From Winogradskyella undariae (GTDB lineage: Bacteria > Bacteroidota > Bacteroidia > Flavobacteriales > Flavobacteriaceae), in the NCBI RefSeq assembly GCF_013285155.1, contig NZ_JABTEL010000003.1, positions 1-64,000 on the forward strand: a stretch of 64,000 nt of DNA, in the 5' to 3' direction. The notes under the pieces are model-generated. The model had not been told where the DNA came from and made no database searches. It saw only the letters and a list, made by a program, of their open reading frames with translations. Of this stretch, positions 1-6,504 are shown piece by piece. Each line of letters starts with the position of its first letter. Position 1 is the first letter of the stretch. The position numbers were made by a program, and so were the translations under genes.

Positions 1-294
1 TTACCTGAAGTCTTACTATGGCAACATATAAAACAGCGTGCTTATGGTGTTCAGTTTCATAGGCAAGTACCAATGCTAAATTACATTGTAGATTTTTATT
101 GCCATGAAATAGGGTTGGTGATTGAAATTGATGGCGATAGCCATGAGCATCGTTTTAGATATGATACCAAACGGCAAAGTGAACTAGAGGCTTATGATGT
201 TACTTTTTTAAGGTTTTCTAATTAGGAGGTTAAAAAGAATATGTTTAGTGTGTTGTTGGTTATAGAAGAGAAAATAAAAGAATTAACCGAGTAG
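1..294 (+). pseudogene. DUF559 endonuclease-like gene, 5'-truncated by the window edge and carrying an in-frame stop
   Basis: Frame 1 reads from the first base with the typical DUF559 (Vsr-like/PD-(D/E)XK nuclease-fold) pattern: LPEVLLWQHIK, then QFHRQVP, IVDFYCHE and VIEIDGDSH. It runs to FLRFSN and hits TAG at 223-225. The same frame continues across the stop with EVKKN...VIEEKIKEL, which is the normal family C-terminus, and ends at 292-294. The stop lies where a Glu or Lys codon is expected, so a single G-to-T or A-to-T change would explain it. The start lies outside the window. DUF559 proteins are small and thought to be nucleases of the Vsr/restriction-endonuclease fold, but their biological role is not well established. 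I infer a nonsense-mutated gene; a sequencing error or a tolerated C-terminal truncation is also possible. Confidence 0.75.
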
Positions 295-430: not shown

Positions 431-498
431 ATCAATAAACCCTATGAATATTCTATTTTCCATTATCAAATGTCCCCTTGAGGGGACTTTAGGGGTGT
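431..498 (+). repeat. 68-bp direct repeat, copy 1, with palindrome GTCCCC-TTGA-GGGGAC
   Basis: The segment is repeated exactly 150 bp downstream (581-648) with two mismatches (462 versus 612, 492 versus 642). Each copy holds a 6-bp inverted repeat with a four-base centre (472-487 here) followed by CTTTAGGGGTGT. The palindrome and the linkage to DUF559 genes suggest a small interspersed repeat that travels with, or is inserted beside, these genes. Confidence 0.85.
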
Positions 499-525
499 TG
501 AAAAGAAGAGTGATAAATTAGTACA

Positions 526-663: not shown

Positions 664-1445
664 TTATCTTCTAATTTTTTTAATTTTTTCTTTTAATTCT
701 TGAACTGATAGTGTAATGTTTTTTTTTCGATGAACCATTCTATGACAATTAGCACATAGTACAGCTAAATCTGTTTTCGGGTTAGTTTCAATTTCTATTC
801 CTTTGTTTTCAGATAATGGTTGGATGTGATGTACTTCTATAAATCCTTTTCCCCAATCTCCATAGAAATCCTGAAAGTTGAACCCACAAGCAACACATTC
901 TAATCCATGAATTTTTATAGCTTCATTTTTAATGGAAGGCTGTCTTTCATATTTATTTATAGTAGCTACTTTTATACCTCCTTCTGTTTTTCCTGTTTTA
1001 TATTCAGATTCGCTTTCTTGAATACTAATAAGATCATCAAAAATTTGCTTGTAGTCTTTTGCTTTTAAATCAGAGTATATTTTAATAATATCCCAAACCT
1101 GATCTTCTGTTTTGTCAATTAAATCATCAAAAATAATTTGAGATTCTTTCCCTAATGGATTTGGTTTTTATTGTCTGATAACCATCCAATGCGTTGAGAA
1201 TTTGGCAAGTGACTATCAAATGCGTCACGTGCATTTTTTAAACTGCGTTCAAAAGCTAAAACTGTTCTACCTCTATTTAATTTCTCATAGAAAATTCTAT
1301 AAGCGTTATTCCATTTATCAACCTTAAGGCGAGATGGTGGAGAAGGATAATTTTCGTTGTTATTTACTTCTCCAAACTTTGAAAAATAAAAACTTACCTC
1401 TAGAAACTCTTTGCTTCTCTTTTGCGATTTATTGTAGGATTTCAT
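664..1445 (-). pseudogene. HNH endonuclease (McrA-like) gene broken by a -1 frameshift
   Basis: The N-terminal 97-residue part (1445 down to 1152) and the C-terminal part (about 1164 down to 664) are in different frames but join naturally at a T5 run at 1165-1169. One extra base there would give ...SDNKKPNPLGKES... and an intact protein of about 264 residues. The C-terminal half is an HNH domain: CVAC, then GFIEVHHIQPLSE with the His pair, then LCANCHRMVHR. That is the four-cysteine zinc form seen in McrA-like nucleases. It is the last gene of the minus-strand operon, 6 bp after the receiver-like gene, so it is the likely restriction nuclease of the system. As read it should be inactive. A sequencing error in the homopolymer, slippage or phase variation are alternatives. 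Confidence 0.75.
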
Positions 1446-1451
1446 TATTGG

Positions 1452-2798
1452 TTAAAAACTTGTGATACCTATCCTAGAGACATGACTAGCATATTTATTA
1501 CCTAACATATCAATTATTTCTTTATTTAAAGAAAAAAGAGGGTCTCCTAATCTTGAGTCTTGCGGTGTTGTGCCTATGACAAAATTTAAATCAAGACATA
1601 TTTGAACAGGTGAATTTTCATAATAAAAAGTGCAACCTCCTATATGATAGCTGCTTTCTATACGGCCTCTAGTATTAACATCCTTAGTGAAATCTATTTC
1701 TGGGATTAAAACGCCTAATATGTATTTATTAGCTCTATCTTTTTTTTGAGAATAATCACAAGCAGAACTAAATTCAATAGCAATAAATTTAGAATCCTTT
1801 TTTATTTTCTTAATTAATTCAGTTTTATTATCCTTAATTGCCAAAACTCTTATTATCCATTCATCGAGATTTGTAATACCAAATGTTTGAATTAATTTAT
1901 TGTTTTTTTTATCTAAATTAAGAACAACACCTCTGTCATCTTTTTGTATTCTTTCATAGTCAATATGAAATATTGTATTTAGTTTCTGTGAAATTGCGAT
2001 ACAAGGAAATTTTACATCACCAAATTTCATAGCATTAGTTAAAGTCGGAATTAATTTTTCTTTGTTAATTTTAGGGCTTGAATTTATTATTTCATTGTTC
2101 ATAATCTGAATTAAACCGTCATAAATACCCTTTTCGGGTTTTTCTTTTGCGTAATCAAACCCAATAGTTGTAATGGCTATTTTAGAAAGAACTTTATCTA
2201 TATTTTCAAAATATAAAACTGTATCTCCCCATTTTTCATCCTTAGGGATAATGGAATGTAATTTGTCTATCGTTTTTGATCCGGCTATTCTCGCTTTTTC
2301 TTCAAAATCAAAATAGAATTTAATTTTATCATCTTCAAAAATGGTAGATAATTTTTCTAATATATTATCATTATTAATTTCAGATTTATCGAGTTCTCCT
2401 ATAAAAAATGGAGAAGCTGTGTCTGAAAAACCTCTTGTAGGATCTTGCATGTATTCTATAAAAGCTTGGATGACTTTTTTGTTTTTAGTCCAAAATATTA
2501 ATGCATATGGACCATTTTCCTTAGAAATATATTGGTTAATAGCAATCGCTAAATCATTAAATACAGCAGTGTTTAATTGGATTAGGTCTTTTTGAGTATC
2601 TGCGATACTATTTACTCTACTTGTAGTTAGGTTTAGGTCAAAAAAAGCTAGTCTAATTCCGTTTAAGGGAGTGTTGTATTCTATTTCATATTCAAAAGGT
2701 CTACAGCCAACACCTGTACTTAAAAATGCTTTTGTAAGAGTTTCTAATTCAGATTTATCATCATCAACGATGATTATTTTATTTTGAGGTGTAATCAT
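1452..2798 (-). CDS. Receiver-domain protein of the restriction-modification operon
   Basis: The protein has about 448 residues from the ATG at 2798. A frame opening at 2837 would lengthen it by 13 residues and overlap the upstream gene; the shorter start places the first residues directly at the receiver fold. The N-terminal ~140 residues have all receiver landmarks: IIIVDDD (D12/D13), FFDLNL (D54, the phosphoacceptor position), LIFWTKN (T104) and FFIGELDK (K138). The remaining ~300 residues match no family I recognise and contain no HTH, so it is not an ordinary transcriptional response regulator. It starts 6 bp after the GHKL gene stop and ends 6 bp before the HNH gene. I infer that it receives a signal, perhaps phosphate, from the neighbouring kinase-like protein and controls or bridges to the nuclease. 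This function is unproven. Confidence 0.65.
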   Translation of the reverse strand: MITPQNKIIIVDDDKSELETLTKAFLSTGVGCRPFEYEIEYNTPLNGIRLAFFDLNLTTSRVNSIADTQKDLIQLNTAVFNDLAIAINQYISKENGPYALIFWTKNKKVIQAFIEYMQDPTRGFSDTASPFFIGELDKSEINNDNILEKLSTIFEDDKIKFYFDFEEKARIAGSKTIDKLHSIIPKDEKWGDTVLYFENIDKVLSKIAITTIGFDYAKEKPEKGIYDGLIQIMNNEIINSSPKINKEKLIPTLTNAMKFGDVKFPCIAISQKLNTIFHIDYERIQKDDRGVVLNLDKKNNKLIQTFGITNLDEWIIRVLAIKDNKTELIKKIKKDSKFIAIEFSSACDYSQKKDRANKYILGVLIPEIDFTKDVNTRGRIESSYHIGGCTFYYENSPVQICLDLNFVIGTTPQDSRLGDPLFSLNKEIIDMLGNKYASHVSRIGITSF

Positions 2799-2803
2799 TT
2801 TTT

Positions 2804-4990
2804 TTATTGATTTTTTGGAAAAACTAATACAATACATGCTCCTGTATATGCTGGCGGTAGATCTAAATCTGCAACATCTGGAAACAATAATTTGCCTCCT
2901 GTCATTTTCATTACTAAATCAGCAAAATATAAGCCTAGTCCCATTCCGCCTTCTTCTTTGTTTGTTTTGAAAGCTTGTGTTAAATATTCAGGTTCCATCG
3001 AGAATCCATTTCCATTATCAGCTATAATGATTGATGGAGCGTCGTATGTTGCTATGTCAGTACCTATAAATATAGCAGGTTGATATGTGCTACCTTTTAA
3101 ATCTCGTTTTGCAGTTGTCCAATAAATACTATTATCTATTAAATTTGAAACAGCACTAATTATCAAATTAGTAGGTCCTTTAAATTTGAAATCTGGCAGT
3201 TCTCCTGTTAAAACGGGAGAAGAAAAGACAATTTCGTGGTAATTAAATCTGTTGTCATTTCTTCTTTTAGAAATCTCTATGATTGTCTTAGCTGTTGAAT
3301 TTGATTTTTTGTTTTTTCGTAATAGTGGAGATAGACTCTCCATAATTTGCAGAAGACTTGAAACTCTATCTTTAATTTCGATAATATTAATTTTATCAGT
3401 TTGTAAGTCTGAATTAATATATTTCATTTCTCTTTCTATTTCATGAAAAGCTATTCCAAGATTTAATCCTGTCATCCCAGAATTAATCATAATATCACGC
3501 ATTTCATTATAATCCTTGCCTACTTTTTTCAATAAAGGATCAAGTTCTTTGTCAAGATTTTTTTCTTTTAATTTTTCTTCTAATTCTCTAATAGTATCTC
3601 CAAAGCCAATTTTTTTAATAGGTTTTAATTCCTCTAAAAATTCATCTATTTTTTCTTTATCCTGTAAAGCATTTTTTTCAAAAAAACTAAAAATAGACTT
3701 AACTATTATTTGAAACTTATCGTAAGTGATATTCTCAATTAAACCTTCTCTATTAGTTTTTTCTACTAAACCATTAACGCTTGAAGCTAAATCTAATTCA
3801 ATAACGCCAATTGTAACTTTCTTTCCAAAATGAGAACCAGCATGCTGAATTTTGTCATAATCTAAGTTTAACCAATCATCATTGGATTCTCCGTAATTAT
3901 AAACTCGTATATTATCTCTAAAAATCTTAACACCTTTATTGTCACTTATGTAGTTTTTAACAGCTTGTAATTGACCCGGGAAATGACCTTCTAGTATTGC
4001 TCTATTTTGATTAAAAACATAAAAACGACCTTGGATATTGCCAATTCCTTTTAGATCAGAATTCTGGAGATATTTCTTGTACAATGGTTTTCCTTCCGCG
4101 TCAAGACCATCTATATCTTTAAATGATTCGCCAATTAGTAGCAAAGGATTTTTTTTCTCAGATTGTTTTTCATCTTTTTCTATGTTAATGTTTTTGTGAG
4201 GATTGAATTTATAACTCCAATTAAAATTCGCAAAAGGGTACTGCTTTTCATCTTTTTTAGATAAATCTAAATTGAAATCAAATTGGTACAAACTATTTTC
4301 AAGAATTTCTTTTGGTGTTTTTATACTTTCAATCCATTCTTTATGCCAGTCGTTGCAAGTTATTTCAATAGAAAAATCTGATGATTCTTGAAAAGGGTTT
4401 TTAATATTGTCTATTTTACGAACCAGTTCTCTAAAACTTTTTTTAGTCCAGTTTTTAGTTGTTAGATCGCTTAATGTAATCCTTGTTCCTTGACCTTTTT
4501 CAAAGTTTATGTTTGCTACGGTTTCAACTTCAACTTCTAACTCTTGTATGAATTCTTTAGAGTTTATCAGTTTAGGCCAGTTGATTTCTAGTCTGTTAGA
4601 GAACATTTGACCAGATTCTTGAGTTTCTAGTTCAATTATCTTTGCTAGCTTATGCACAGCAAGTCTGCCTACACCTTTGTTTCCAAATGACACTCGGTTA
4701 TATTTATTACTAACTTTTCTGTTTTTACCTCTTTTGAAATCAGTACCAATGGTGAGCCAAACATTTTCTATTGTTTGTGCGGACATACCATGACCATCAT
4801 CTTCAATTATTATTTGTTGAGATTCCGTATTTAGGTCAATAAATTGGACTTTGACTTTATCGGCATCTGCATCGTAGGCATTTTTTACAAGCTCAAAAAT
4901 AGCCAAGCTATCACTTCCAATTAATTCCTCTCCTAAAAGACTTAGAATATGGCTTTTCGCTTTAATGCGATGTTTCTTTTTGTTTACCAT
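2804..4990 (-). CDS. Dual GHKL ATPase: MORC/MutL-like N-terminal fold plus histidine-kinase-like C-terminal fold
   Basis: The protein has 728 residues. The N-terminal GHKL domain has ELVKNAYDADA (33-43), EDDGHGM (63-69) and GNKGVGRLA (103-111), the Hsp90/MutL/MORC-type N, G1 and G2 boxes. A middle part with RVYNYG, DDWL and KTNREGL resembles the transducer region of ATP-binding proteins found in restriction loci. After a coiled coil (~440-500) comes GIAFHEIER with His516, like a kinase H-box. A second ATPase of histidine-kinase type follows: NLIDN (616-620), ADNGNGF (657-663) and GGMGLGLYFA (681-690). It overlaps the methyltransferase gene by 7 bp. MutL/MORC-like ATPases are known from bacterial R-M operons; the kinase-like second half paired with a receiver neighbour suggests phosphotransfer, which is inference. 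Confidence 0.8.
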   Translation of the reverse strand: MVNKKKHRIKAKSHILSLLGEELIGSDSLAIFELVKNAYDADADKVKVQFIDLNTESQQIIIEDDGHGMSAQTIENVWLTIGTDFKRGKNRKVSNKYNRVSFGNKGVGRLAVHKLAKIIELETQESGQMFSNRLEINWPKLINSKEFIQELEVEVETVANINFEKGQGTRITLSDLTTKNWTKKSFRELVRKIDNIKNPFQESSDFSIEITCNDWHKEWIESIKTPKEILENSLYQFDFNLDLSKKDEKQYPFANFNWSYKFNPHKNINIEKDEKQSEKKNPLLLIGESFKDIDGLDAEGKPLYKKYLQNSDLKGIGNIQGRFYVFNQNRAILEGHFPGQLQAVKNYISDNKGVKIFRDNIRVYNYGESNDDWLNLDYDKIQHAGSHFGKKVTIGVIELDLASSVNGLVEKTNREGLIENITYDKFQIIVKSIFSFFEKNALQDKEKIDEFLEELKPIKKIGFGDTIRELEEKLKEKNLDKELDPLLKKVGKDYNEMRDIMINSGMTGLNLGIAFHEIEREMKYINSDLQTDKINIIEIKDRVSSLLQIMESLSPLLRKNKKSNSTAKTIIEISKRRNDNRFNYHEIVFSSPVLTGELPDFKFKGPTNLIISAVSNLIDNSIYWTTAKRDLKGSTYQPAIFIGTDIATYDAPSIIIADNGNGFSMEPEYLTQAFKTNKEEGGMGLGLYFADLVMKMTGGKLLFPDVADLDLPPAYTGACIVLVFPKNQ

Positions 4991-6219
4991 AATTGTTCTT
5001 TAATTTTATTTGCAATCTCATTCGCCATCAAAGGAGGAACTGCATTTCCAATTTGTCTAAATGCAGCACTTCTACCACCTTCAAAAAAGAAATTGTCTGG
5101 AAAAGATTGGACTCTTGCAGCTTCTCTAACTGATAAAGATCTTATTTGTTTATTGTCTGGATAGATATAATGGTGACCATCCTTTGCTATGTGAGCAACC
5201 ATTGTGTGTGATAGACCATTAATGTCAACAACTTTGTATCTGTCAACAAATGATTTTTCATTTTTATGTGTTTTAAGTTCAGTCGGTAAATCAGGATATT
5301 TTAATCGTTCTGATTTTTTCAACCACTTGTTTATTGCAATTTTGTATATATTTAAATCTCTTTCATTGTGAGGTCTAGCTATATGTTGCGTTACAAAGTC
5401 AACTCCATTTCTTAATTTAAATTTTTCAAGATATGCTGTTGTAGGTTTAGCATAATTTGTGACATTTTTTTGGTCTCCAGGTTTTAGTTTTTTTAAATCA
5501 GATAGAATTTGACTTATAGTAAATTTCTCGTTGAGTTTGTCAAATTTTGGGTATTTAAAATCTGTGCCTTTTTGCCAACCTATTAAAATAATCCGTCTTC
5601 TTTTTTGTAAAACTCCAAAATGCTCTGATTTTTGAATAGTATAATCTAATTCATATCCTATACGTTTAAAATATGCTTGCATATTTTTAAAATAACTTCC
5701 TTTTTCAGCAGTTATTAAGCCCATTACATTTTCAAATACAAAGACTTTAGGATTGTATTTTTTTAAAAATTTAGCGTATTCTTTATACAGGAAGTTTCGA
5801 GGGTCATTTTTCATACCATCTTTATCTCTTGCTCTTCCAACGAGAGAATAGGCTTGACAAGGAGGTCCACCAATAATTAAGTCTACTTTATTACCTTTAT
5901 TCAGCTTATCAATTTTGTCGAAAATGATTTTATTGTTATCTCCTCCAATTGGAATGTTTATAACAGAATTGGAAAGTTCAGTTGAACCATAGTTTTTCAA
6001 AAAATCCTCACGACTCATTTTCTCTGAAATGTAATCGTAATAATTTTGTGTTCTATTTTCAGATTTTAACTTATGATAGACTAATCTAGTTTCTAAAGTT
6101 TCACAAGCTTTTTTGTCAATTTCAACATGTGCAATTGGAGTAAATCCAGCTTTAATAAAACCTTCAGAAAGTCCTCCTGCTCCTGAAAACAAATCTATAA
6201 ACGTATATTTATTTTTCAT
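4984..6219 (-). CDS. DNA (cytosine-5-)-methyltransferase
   Basis: The protein has 411 residues from the ATG at 6219. A longer frame opens at 6252 but would add 11 non-conserved residues inside the regulator gene. Motif I is FIDLFSGAGGLSEGF near the N terminus. Motif IV is GGPPCQAYS with the catalytic Cys121. ENV (motif VI), QKRRRI (motif VIII) and QIGNAVPPLMA (motif X) are present, with a variable region of normal length before motif IX, so the enzyme looks complete. It should methylate C5 of cytosine in a specific short sequence and protect it from the linked nuclease. Its start overlaps the stop of the C-protein gene, so the two are translationally coupled. With the HNH gene broken, it may now act as an orphan methylase. 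Confidence 0.95.
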   Translation of the reverse strand: MKNKYTFIDLFSGAGGLSEGFIKAGFTPIAHVEIDKKACETLETRLVYHKLKSENRTQNYYDYISEKMSREDFLKNYGSTELSNSVINIPIGGDNNKIIFDKIDKLNKGNKVDLIIGGPPCQAYSLVGRARDKDGMKNDPRNFLYKEYAKFLKKYNPKVFVFENVMGLITAEKGSYFKNMQAYFKRIGYELDYTIQKSEHFGVLQKRRRIILIGWQKGTDFKYPKFDKLNEKFTISQILSDLKKLKPGDQKNVTNYAKPTTAYLEKFKLRNGVDFVTQHIARPHNERDLNIYKIAINKWLKKSERLKYPDLPTELKTHKNEKSFVDRYKVVDINGLSHTMVAHIAKDGHHYIYPDNKQIRSLSVREAARVQSFPDNFFFEGGRSAAFRQIGNAVPPLMANEIANKIKEQLW

Positions 6220-6436
6220 CGTCAAACTCTTTGTCATTAAAAAATGTTGCAAAGTTTGTTCCTAGACCATGGATTATTCTGTCTAAAACCCTCACGGTTA
6301 CATTTCGTTTTCCCGTTTCTACACCAGTCATGTAGGTTCTATCAACATCGGCCTTGTGGGCCAAAGCTTCTTGCGATAATTTTTGAGCTTTTCTAAGCGT
6401 TAGGATACGCTTACCGATTTTTTTATTAATACTCAT
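6209..6436 (-). CDS. C-protein-like XRE-family controller of the R-M operon
   Basis: A 75-residue protein that is almost entirely one helix-turn-helix domain: the basic N-terminus is followed by KLSQEALAHKADVDRTYMT and VETGKRNVTVRVLDRI. Size and layout match the controller (C) proteins of type II restriction systems, small dimeric XRE regulators that time nuclease expression. It is the first gene of the operon, overlaps the methyltransferase, and is preceded by a C-box-like operator in its own promoter (6475-6504), which supports autoregulation. A plain XRE repressor is the alternative. In classical systems C and the nuclease share an operon; here C also leads the methylase, ATPase and receiver genes. 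Confidence 0.85.
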   Translation of the reverse strand: MSINKKIGKRILTLRKAQKLSQEALAHKADVDRTYMTGVETGKRNVTVRVLDRIIHGLGTNFATFFNDKEFDDEK

Positions 6437-6459: not shown

Positions 6460-6504
6460 CAAATTTAATCTGATGTTGTATTTATTACAACGGACTATGA
6501 GTCA
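6460..6504 (-). promoter_or_regulatory. Promoter and C-box-like operator of the R-M operon
   Basis: On the minus strand TAAATTTG (6467 down to 6460) matches the Bacteroidetes -7 box TAnnTTTG, about 24 bases before the regulator ATG, with a TTG about 20 bases further upstream. Upstream of the -7 box lie two inverted repeats: GTTGTA-N5-TACAAC (6475-6491), covering the -33 region, and GACTCATAGTC (6493-6503). The latter fits the C-box consensus GACT-N3-AGTC. The whole stretch resembles the Esp1396I/AhdI-type operator as I remember it, including the CCGT link between boxes. A distal strong box and a proximal box over the promoter are what switch from activation to repression in C systems. Confidence 0.7.

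What the first reader, a model, noticed from the sequence alone, without database searches (positions are those of the whole stretch)
1452..4990. Restriction-modification operon with a built-in kinase/receiver-like pair
Within a C-protein, m5C methylase and HNH operon, two extra genes look like a two-component system: a protein with a histidine-kinase-type ATPase and an H-box-like HEIER (His516), and a protein with the complete receiver set (D12/D13, D54, T104, K138) but a C-terminus with no known domain and no DNA-binding motif. All genes overlap or nearly touch. GHKL ATPases of the MutL/MORC type are known from R-M loci; coupling methylation and cleavage to a phosphorelay-like pair is, as far as I know, not functionally described. 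It could be a defence system whose nuclease is gated by a signal.
Basis: partly seen in the sequence, partly recalled or inferred. Interest (0 to 1): 0.78.

Follow-up and report, generated by a model that had tools for sequence, protein, structure and literature searches.

The report
Two-component-like pair in restriction operon
A bacterial DNA-methylation/restriction operon carries a matched pair of proteins built like a signalling kinase and its receiver; the kind was predicted by others in 2021 without a bench test, and this locus belongs to a separate, tightly linked branch of it.

Summary
On the minus strand lie a C-protein, an m5C methylase, a 728-aa protein with two GHKL ATPase domains, a receiver protein and an HNH gene interrupted by a frame change. 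The two genes sit together on one strand in 100/100 loci and diverge together (r 0.92), while the nearest methylase does not follow (r 0.33). Models give a MORC/Hsp90-like ATPase, a kinase DHp-CA module and a REC fold.

The kind is not new: HEF_HK/Response_reg_2 pairs beside C5-methylases were predicted in 2021 (PMC8011034). This family misses both Pfam models (0/43; 0/82) and looks like a sister branch.

"A nuclease gated by the pair" is untested; HNH is not a constant partner (37/76 well-flanked loci show none of six nuclease clusters). I favour a cytosolic His-Asp switch acting on R-M-linked defence through a conserved receiver C-terminus (CD...RxG).

The parts
6493..6503 (.). C-box-like inverted repeat GACTNNNAGTC upstream of the C gene
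   Evidence: only match in the 64-kb window; 0.41 expected by chance, 32 of 100 shuffles have one or more; weak evidence alone
6209..6436 (-). controller (C) protein, HTH, 75 aa
   Evidence: HTH_3 E 5e-10; PADLOC Control_protein E 1.5e-16
4984..6252 (-). m5C DNA methyltransferase ORF, 422 aa (real start probably about 6219, still overlapping the C gene; inference)
   Evidence: DNA_methylase E 7.5e-67; PADLOC DrmMII E 2.3e-173 and MTase_II E 3.6e-107
2804..4990 (-). double-GHKL, histidine-kinase-like protein, 728 aa
   Evidence: HATPase_c_3 and HATPase_c; AF2 model pLDDT 82.5; fold matches to Hsp90, SMCHD1 and MORC and to HK DHp-CA
4508..4903 (-). N-terminal MORC/MutL-type ATPase domain (aa 30-161)
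   Evidence: PF13589 E 2.6e-22; E33, N37, D64, G66, G68, G103, G106, G108 in 97/97
3443..3445 (-). codon of His516 (putative phospho-acceptor, HE motif)
   Evidence: H516 and E517 97/97; aligned with the HisKA His in one of two hhalign settings and with the HEF motif of three HEF_HK proteins
2813..3163 (-). C-terminal HATPase_c (CA) domain (aa 610-726)
   Evidence: PF02518 E 9e-15; N616, N620, D658, G660, G662, G684, G686 in 97/97
1452..2798 (-). receiver protein (ORF as listed 1452-2837; likely start ATG at 2798)
   Evidence: AF2 model pLDDT 92.8; REC fold by VIA-align; conservation
2367..2780 (-). REC domain (aa 20-157 of the 461-aa ORF) with D25, D26, D67, T117, K151
   Evidence: Z 10.6, rmsd 2.7 over 124 residues to ComE REC 4mld_A; D25/D67/K151 98/98, D26 D86/N12, T117 T65/S29/A4
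1455..1997 (-). conserved C-terminal domain with CD (C360 D361) and RxG (R455, G457) signature
   Evidence: C360 95/98, D361 96/98, R455 93/98, G457 91/98, N287 92/98; no PDB sequence match at E<=10
1152..1445 (-). 97-aa ORF, front part of the interrupted nuclease gene (by position)
   Evidence: follows the receiver by 6 bp; one weak match in 198 other family genomes, E 7.6e-4
667..1167 (-). HNH endonuclease part, in a different frame from the 97-aa ORF
   Evidence: PF01844 E 2.1e-7; relatives at E<=1e-8 in 14 of 198 other family genomes

Best explanation
The pair is a cytosolic two-component-like switch attached to a type II m5C restriction-modification locus. It is a sister family of the published HEF_HK/Response_reg_2 pairs. 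Proposed working: the kinase-like protein forms a dimer. Its N-terminal MORC/MutL/Hsp90-type ATPase and transducer act as the sensor or DNA clamp, and a long helix links this to a DHp-like helix pair (H516, E517) and a histidine-kinase ATPase domain. When the clamp engages its cue (most likely unmodified or invading DNA at the sites the methylase protects), ATP is used to phosphorylate H516 and the phosphate passes to D67 of the receiver encoded just downstream. No classic DNA-binding output was recognised in the receiver, so it is expected to act through its own conserved C-terminal CD...RxG domain, either as the effector or as the adaptor that switches on whichever nuclease is nearby. Shown: gene order, domain content, residue conservation, constant pairing, REC and DHp-CA folds in models, a methylase that does not track the pair. 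Inferred: dimer, phosphotransfer, the cue, the output, and that the result is phage defence.
For: H516/E517 97/97 and the ATPase motifs of both domains conserved; REC set D25/D67/K151 98/98. Pair adjacent on the same strand in 100/100 loci, gap -259 to +24 bp; identity correlation over 81 loci (window included) HK-RR 0.92 against HK-MT 0.33. Models: REC fold Z 10.6; DHp-CA, e.g. CckA 5idj 209 residues aligned, Z 16.1, rmsd 3.7; Hsp90, SMCHD1, MORC3 and MORC2 for the N-terminal part. hhalign to 14 HisKA kinases (from 14 of 20 loci) of the same genome, probability 97, E 3e-11. m5C methylase in 68/76 loci with full flanks. No stretch above Kyte-Doolittle 1.6 over 19 residues in either window protein. 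Pair on 7 plasmids and 16 viral contigs, 14 of them with distinct kinase-like proteins.
Against: No biochemistry exists. The DHp region has block pLDDT of only 51-76. Pfam HisKA does not match. The H+4 T/N of HisKA kinases is absent (R/H/Q/K). T117 is Ala in 4 of 98. In one of two hhalign settings the alignment starts after the H-box. Covariation did not single out the DHp-REC interface: DHp with REC helix 1 had 4 pairs in the top 1% against 4.2 expected. 37/76 full loci have none of the six nuclease clusters. The HNH gene here is interrupted.
Confidence: 0.6

Rival explanations
1. The double-GHKL protein plus receiver is itself the restriction component, like the GHKL-containing restriction enzymes of the BbrUII/HgiDII type. 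The REC-like domain and H-box serve as structural or allosteric parts, and the receiver C-terminal CD...RxG domain is the catalytic or DNA-binding part. A separate nuclease is optional.
For: NCBIfam BbrUII/HgiDII model matches aa 15-210 at E 4.7e-31; PADLOC REase_II model PDLC03419 matches 43/43; 37/76 full loci have none of six nuclease clusters; C-terminal residues nearly invariant.
Against: The BbrUII match is N-terminal only and far below its cut-off (108 bits against 550); complete phospho-acceptor and receiver residue sets would be unexplained; no nuclease motif recognised in the receiver; unrecognised nucleases may be hidden among the 37 loci.
Confidence: 0.2
2. The pair serves DNA repair or maintenance around m5C (very-short-patch-type or methylation-linked mismatch handling), with the MutL/MORC-like protein working with Vsr.
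For: Vsr is the commonest neighbour after the methylase: 43/101 loci, 34/76 with full flanks. Iyer 2008 draws the same MutL/Vsr parallel (passages).
Against: 42 of 76 full loci show no Vsr, and a Vsr profile finds none among the 55 window ORFs retained for that test; Vsr commonly accompanies m5C methylases in general (recalled); a phosphorelay is not needed for this.
Confidence: 0.08
3. The pair only tunes expression of the methylase/nuclease, as a classic transcription-regulating two-component system.
For: A C-protein already ties the operon to expression control. Foldseek's best rows for the receiver include full-length DNA-binding regulators such as FixJ, but at rmsd 11-13 and TM 0.34-0.36 of the target, as expected from the REC domain alone.
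Against: No family of any kind matches the 82 receivers in Pfam or NCBIfam at E<=0.001; the pair is found with many dissimilar methylases. The C-terminus was barely tested by fold, so a new DNA-binding domain is not excluded.
Confidence: 0.07
4. In this genome the operon is decaying: with the nuclease gene interrupted, the rest is a passenger or a bare methylase.
For: HNH part and front part in different frames.
Against: C-protein, methylase, kinase-like gene and receiver are all open, and kinase-like gene and receiver keep every key residue; HNH clusters are rare in relatives, so the core may not need it; a one-off sequence error is possible.
Confidence: 0.05

Closest known systems
HEF_HK (PF19191) + Response_reg_2 (PF19192) pairs (Bellieny-Rabelo et al. 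2021, PMC8011034)
   Same: HATPase_c_3 + DHp-like HE motif + HATPase_c; REC-like partner with the DD/D/T/K set beside it; C5-methylase, Vsr and HNH neighbours. Three canonical members (L169-L171) align with this family at both ATPases and at H516/E517, and their receivers also carry a C-terminal CD and RxG.
   Different: Neither Pfam model matches: 0/43 kinase-like, 0/82 receivers, and no PF19192 match in 10 genomes that hold this pair, while both models pass their cut-offs together in three other genomes. Kinase-like protein about 720 aa against 967-1001; receiver about 450 against 528-575. My receiver profile does not find the canonical receivers at E<=1.
paraMORC/MORC-like GHKL ATPases of R-M operons (Iyer et al. 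2008, PMC2292703)
   Same: N-terminal GHKL plus S5-like ATPase module in operons with cytosine methylases, Vsr and HNH.
   Different: The passages read name no kinase module and no receiver ('receiver' occurs 0 times).
BbrUII/HgiDII-type GHKL restriction enzymes
   Same: N-terminal GHKL domain
   Different: Score far below the family cut-off; this protein adds DHp-CA and a receiver partner.
Shedu with GHKL N-terminal domain (VcSduA; PMC12137116, passages)
   Same: A GHKL ATPase proposed to control a nuclease in an anti-phage system
   Different: One protein with a fused nuclease; the passages describe no receiver and no methylase.
Detocs
   Same: Defence system built on a histidine kinase and receivers (passage in PMC11728103)
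   Different: Three genes, with an ATP-degrading PNP effector in the best-described case (PMC11249213); no methylase and no MORC-like ATPase (recalled). Not tested by sequence here.
DISARM class 2 methylase DrmMII
   Same: The methylase's best PADLOC match, E 2.3e-173
   Different: No other Drm gene among the five operon proteins scanned; the wider window was not scanned.

Membership tests
HEF_HK (PF19191) | match to the Pfam model | tested here: not met
   window protein no match up to E 10; 0 of 43 family members at E<=0.01 (43 of the 84 in A5); one further relative at E 0.33 (L005)
HEF_HK (PF19191) | His followed by Glu/Asp in a DHp-like helix between HATPase_c_3 and HATPase_c | tested here: met
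   H516-E517 97/97, in model helix 505-530; aligns with HEF in L169-L171; both ATPase domains 43/43
Response_reg_2 (PF19192) | match to the Pfam model | tested here: not met
   0 of 82 at E<=0.001; 0 of 10 genomes that hold the pair; the model does ring in other genomes
Response_reg_2 (PF19192) | homology of the whole protein | tested here: inconclusive
   hhalign against three canonical members aligned only the C-terminal 113 columns, probability 36, E 4e-4; reversed control probability 0.3
Two-component receiver (REC) | REC fold with acidic pair, phospho-acceptor Asp, T/S and K | tested here: met
   Z 10.6; T/S absent in 4 of 98
Two-component receiver (REC) | phosphorylation of the Asp | not testable with these tools
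   needs biochemistry
Histidine kinase (DHp-CA) | CA domain with ATP-binding motifs | tested here: met
   PF02518 43/43; fold rows
Histidine kinase (DHp-CA) | phospho-acceptor His in the DHp helix, aligned with HisKA | tested here: inconclusive
   aligned in one of two hhalign settings; DHp model confidence low; PF00512 no match
MORC/paraMORC ATPase | N-terminal GHKL with transducer, in R-M operons | tested here: met
   PF13589 43/43; MORC3, MORC2 and SMCHD1 among Foldseek rows; methylase 68/76
BbrUII/HgiDII restriction enzyme (NF050001) | score above the curated cut-off | tested here: not met
   108 bits against 550
Type II R-M with C-protein | C-protein, methylase and cognate nuclease | tested here: inconclusive
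   C-protein and methylase present; HNH gene interrupted, cognate activity unknown

The most novel reading that the evidence does not exclude
Restriction controlled by a phosphorelay with no dedicated restriction enzyme. The MORC-like kinase reads DNA modification state and phosphorylates a receiver whose C-terminal CD...RxG domain is a new, phosphorylation-activated antiviral effector (nuclease or other). This switch re-pairs with dissimilar m5C methylases as a portable module.
Probability: 0.2. Interest if true: 0.85.

Novelty: new variant of a known kind. Interest (0 to 1): 0.5.

Why it matters
R-M systems are usually thought of as fixed pairs of enzymes. A module whose two genes stay together while the methylase beside them differs, that keeps the motifs of two ATPases and a His-Asp pair in nearly every copy examined, and that also sits on plasmids and phage-collection contigs, suggests that bacteria may gate restriction or a linked defence by signalling. 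My searches found no published test of the 2021 prediction. This family gives compact, intact operons for such a test and a conserved output domain to aim at.

Tried and rejected
DISARM: the methylase's best PADLOC match is DrmMII, but no other Drm gene is among the five operon proteins. HNH as core partner: not borne out by the neighbourhood counts. A recurring unrecognised nuclease beside the pair in loci without a nuclease cluster: 112 of 141 adjacent proteins from 36 loci were scanned (29 proteins and one duplicate locus left out). Among the 25 of 103 families displayed no restriction-type DNA endonuclease recurs; single matches include a phage replication protein (GPA), YicC (endoribonuclease) and AIPR; 78 families were not displayed. 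The figure of 37 is an upper bound: a 194-aa neighbour in L088, L090 and L097 looks HNH-like by eye although Pfam gave no match for the L090 copy.

Covariation between kinase-like protein and receiver (96 pairs, effective 84): dominated by other regions; DHp-REC pairs 19 of the top 300 (1.6-fold), DHp with REC helix 1 not enriched (4 against 4.2 expected); inconclusive. Fold of the receiver C-terminus: no separate model could be made (both prediction jobs used); no PDB sequence match; the viral structure library gave nothing clear; the listed PDB rows span mainly residues 17-177, so absence of a match says nothing about that part. First genome and viral scans with the receiver alone found no relatives; a kinase-like alignment was used instead. 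Intact version of the interrupted nuclease: relatives of the HNH part with open frames of 162-365 aa exist in other genomes; whether they are the same gene was not worked out.

Not excluded: the orthologous group of the 2021 paper may contain members of this family. It lists Azotobacter and Chlorobium near Vsr, and the Azotobacter genome of L097 holds this pair but no PF19192 match.
Full report
What is there. On the minus strand of the window, in order of transcription: a 75-aa C-protein (6209-6436), an m5C methylase (4984-6252), a 728-aa GHKL protein (2804-4990), a receiver-like protein (1452-2837 as ORF, likely start 2798), a 97-aa ORF (1152-1445) and, in a different frame, an HNH part (667-1167). 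Neighbours overlap or lie within a few bases. A C-box-like GACTNNNAGTC at 6493-6503 is the only such site in the window (0.41 expected); this supports the C-protein reading only weakly. The window is bases 1-64000 of contig 33 of its assembly, so nothing is known beyond position 1.

The kinase-like protein. Pfam finds two ATPase domains, HATPase_c_3 (aa 30-161) and HATPase_c (aa 610-726). The AlphaFold model (mean pLDDT 82.5; blocks of 51-76 over aa 501-560) matches Hsp90/TRAP1, SMCHD1, MORC3 and MORC2 structures (Foldseek) and histidine-kinase DHp-CA structures over about aa 501-728 (for example 5idj CckA, Z 16.1, rmsd 3.7, 209 aligned; 8a7f, Z 17.4, rmsd 3.0, 205 aligned). A profile of aa 470-728 aligns with 14 HisKA kinases, taken by their H-box from 14 of 20 loci of the same genome (probability 97, E 3e-11). 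With one match-column rule H516 falls on the HisKA phospho-His; with the other the alignment starts after it. PF00512 itself does not match.

The receiver. The model is very confident (pLDDT 92.8). Residues 17-177 have the REC fold (ComE REC 4mld_A, Z 10.6, rmsd 2.7, 124 aligned). A helical middle and a C-terminal domain follow. The C-terminal domain carries C360-D361, N287, G303, R455 and G457, nearly invariant. No Pfam or NCBIfam model matches any of 82 receivers at E<=0.001, and the C-terminal profile matches no PDB sequence; two of the 82 match a PADLOC model weakly (E 1.5e-4 and 1.7e-4).

Relatives. A scan of 84,980 species genomes with a kinase-like alignment gave 347 relatives, of which the best 80 were kept (L050-L129). 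The viral collection gave 34 loci, 16 of them with matches over nearly the whole protein (L130-L145; 14 distinct kinase-like proteins). I analysed these 96 plus eight earlier loci, 104 in all. Three of the eight duplicate others and were dropped, leaving 101. The 18 weaker viral loci and the 267 genome relatives not kept were not analysed. A receiver ORF was found in all 104. In L105 no kinase-like ORF passed my cut-off, in L118 it is split in two ORFs, and in L050 and L071 the receiver runs off the contig. In the 100 loci with both called, both genes are on one strand with a gap of -259 to +24 bp; the largest overlaps come from taking the longest ORF. These loci were chosen by the kinase-like protein. 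Starting from the receiver instead: all five other hits in the phylum have a kinase-like ORF alongside (HATPase_c confirmed for the three scanned), and so do all seven plasmid hits. One hit in the phage collection (L049, 5.5-kb unannotated record) was not examined further.

Conservation (unique sequences, window included). Kinase-like (97): H516 97, E517 97, H585 97; of the ATP-site residues listed, all 97 except D619 (96) and G682 (95). Receiver (98): D25 98, D26 86 D and 12 N, D67 98, W116 98, T117 65 T, 29 S and 4 A, K151 98. Against a textbook HisKA kinase: the residue four after H516 is R/H/Q/K, not the T/N linked to phosphatase activity (recalled).

Module behaviour. Across 81 loci (window included; 3,240 pairs) the identity of kinase-like proteins tracks that of receivers (r 0.92) but hardly that of the nearest m5C methylase (r 0.33); 70 pairs share over 60% identity in the kinase-like protein and under 35% in the methylase. 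The nearest methylase need not always belong to the system, which would lower that correlation. A methylase (by similarity cluster) is present in 68 of 76 loci with enough flank, Vsr in 34, another of five nuclease clusters (AspBHI/Mrr, MvaI/BcnI, EcoRII-C, HNH_2, window-type HNH) in 18, and none of the six nuclease clusters in 37 (nuclease clusters named from one scanned representative each). That 37 is an upper bound, because unrecognised nucleases may remain, such as an HNH-like 194-aa neighbour in three loci. The nearest methylase is most often directly upstream on the same strand (28 loci, under 60 bp) or directly downstream on the opposite strand (26 loci). So the constant unit is the pair; the methylase is usual, the recognised nucleases are variable. 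Loci L066 and L068 repeat the window layout with a different HNH family and a Vsr gene.

Prior art. Bellieny-Rabelo et al. 2021 (PMC8011034; abstract, introduction, results and discussion read; [quoted passage not shown] the parts read report no experiment on the pair beyond its up-regulation in a transcriptome. Iyer et al. 2008 (PMC2292703; passages) described paraMORC ATPases in R-M operons. DefensePredictor 2026 (PMC13092281; passages and legends) abbreviates HATPase and REC in a legend of predicted, not validated systems; whether that is this family could not be seen. My searches found no functional test of such a pair; only open-licence papers are held.

Family placement. This family is outside both Pfam models, while both models pass their cut-offs side by side in three other genomes (L169-L171). 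Those canonical proteins are longer, yet my kinase-like profile finds them at E 3e-50 to 1e-56, their HEF motif falls on H516-E517, and their receivers end in a CD and an RxG like ours. My receiver profile does not find those receivers at E<=1, and profile comparison aligned only the C-terminus (probability 36; reversed control 0.3). I read this as sister branches of one kind; for the kinase-like proteins that is firm, for the receivers suggestive.

Mechanism and confidence. I give 0.6 to a His-Asp switch that acts on R-M-linked defence, with the MORC-like domain as sensor and the receiver C-terminus as output. Phosphotransfer, cue and output are inferred. The main rival (0.2) is that the pair is itself the restricting part.

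Verdict. The kind was already predicted; the family branch, the constant pairing with exchangeable methylases, and the shared receiver C-terminus are what this work adds.

Noticed in passing
window 667-1445 (-): HNH nuclease gene read in two frames (97-aa ORF, then HNH part): pseudogene or sequence error.
   Followed up: partly
window 431-507 and 581-657: 77-nt direct repeat in two copies (94% alike) after the operon; a 97%-identical 123-base copy and a 35-base match lie elsewhere in the genome.
   Followed up: partly
window 1-225 (+): ORF cut by the contig start that looks like a DUF559-type nuclease fragment (recalled resemblance); a Vsr profile did not match it.
   Followed up: no
window 3236-3238 (-), kinase-like aa 585: A second His, H585, just before the C-terminal ATPase domain, is invariant in 97/97 homologues; role unknown.
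   Followed up: no
L043 5397-10815; L041 7031-12355; L042 4043-9156: Other GHKL-plus-receiver-like arrangements near methylases: small ORF-methylase-HK-REC (L043, with CD and RxG in its receiver too), GHKL-REC-like-211-aa ORF-large ORF (L041), methylase-GHKL-265-aa ORF-REC-like-217-aa ORF (L042).
   Followed up: partly
L130-L145: Sixteen contigs of the viral collection carry the pair (14 distinct kinase-like proteins); phage gene families occur among neighbours scanned, which does not tell from which loci.
   Followed up: partly
plasmid hits H16-H35 (Campylobacter): 20 Campylobacter plasmids carry a protein, mostly annotated as histidine kinase, about 27% identical to aa 4-443 of the GHKL protein.
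   Followed up: no
L118 7986-10191: Kinase-like gene split in two ORFs in a Sporocytophaga MAG.
   Followed up: no
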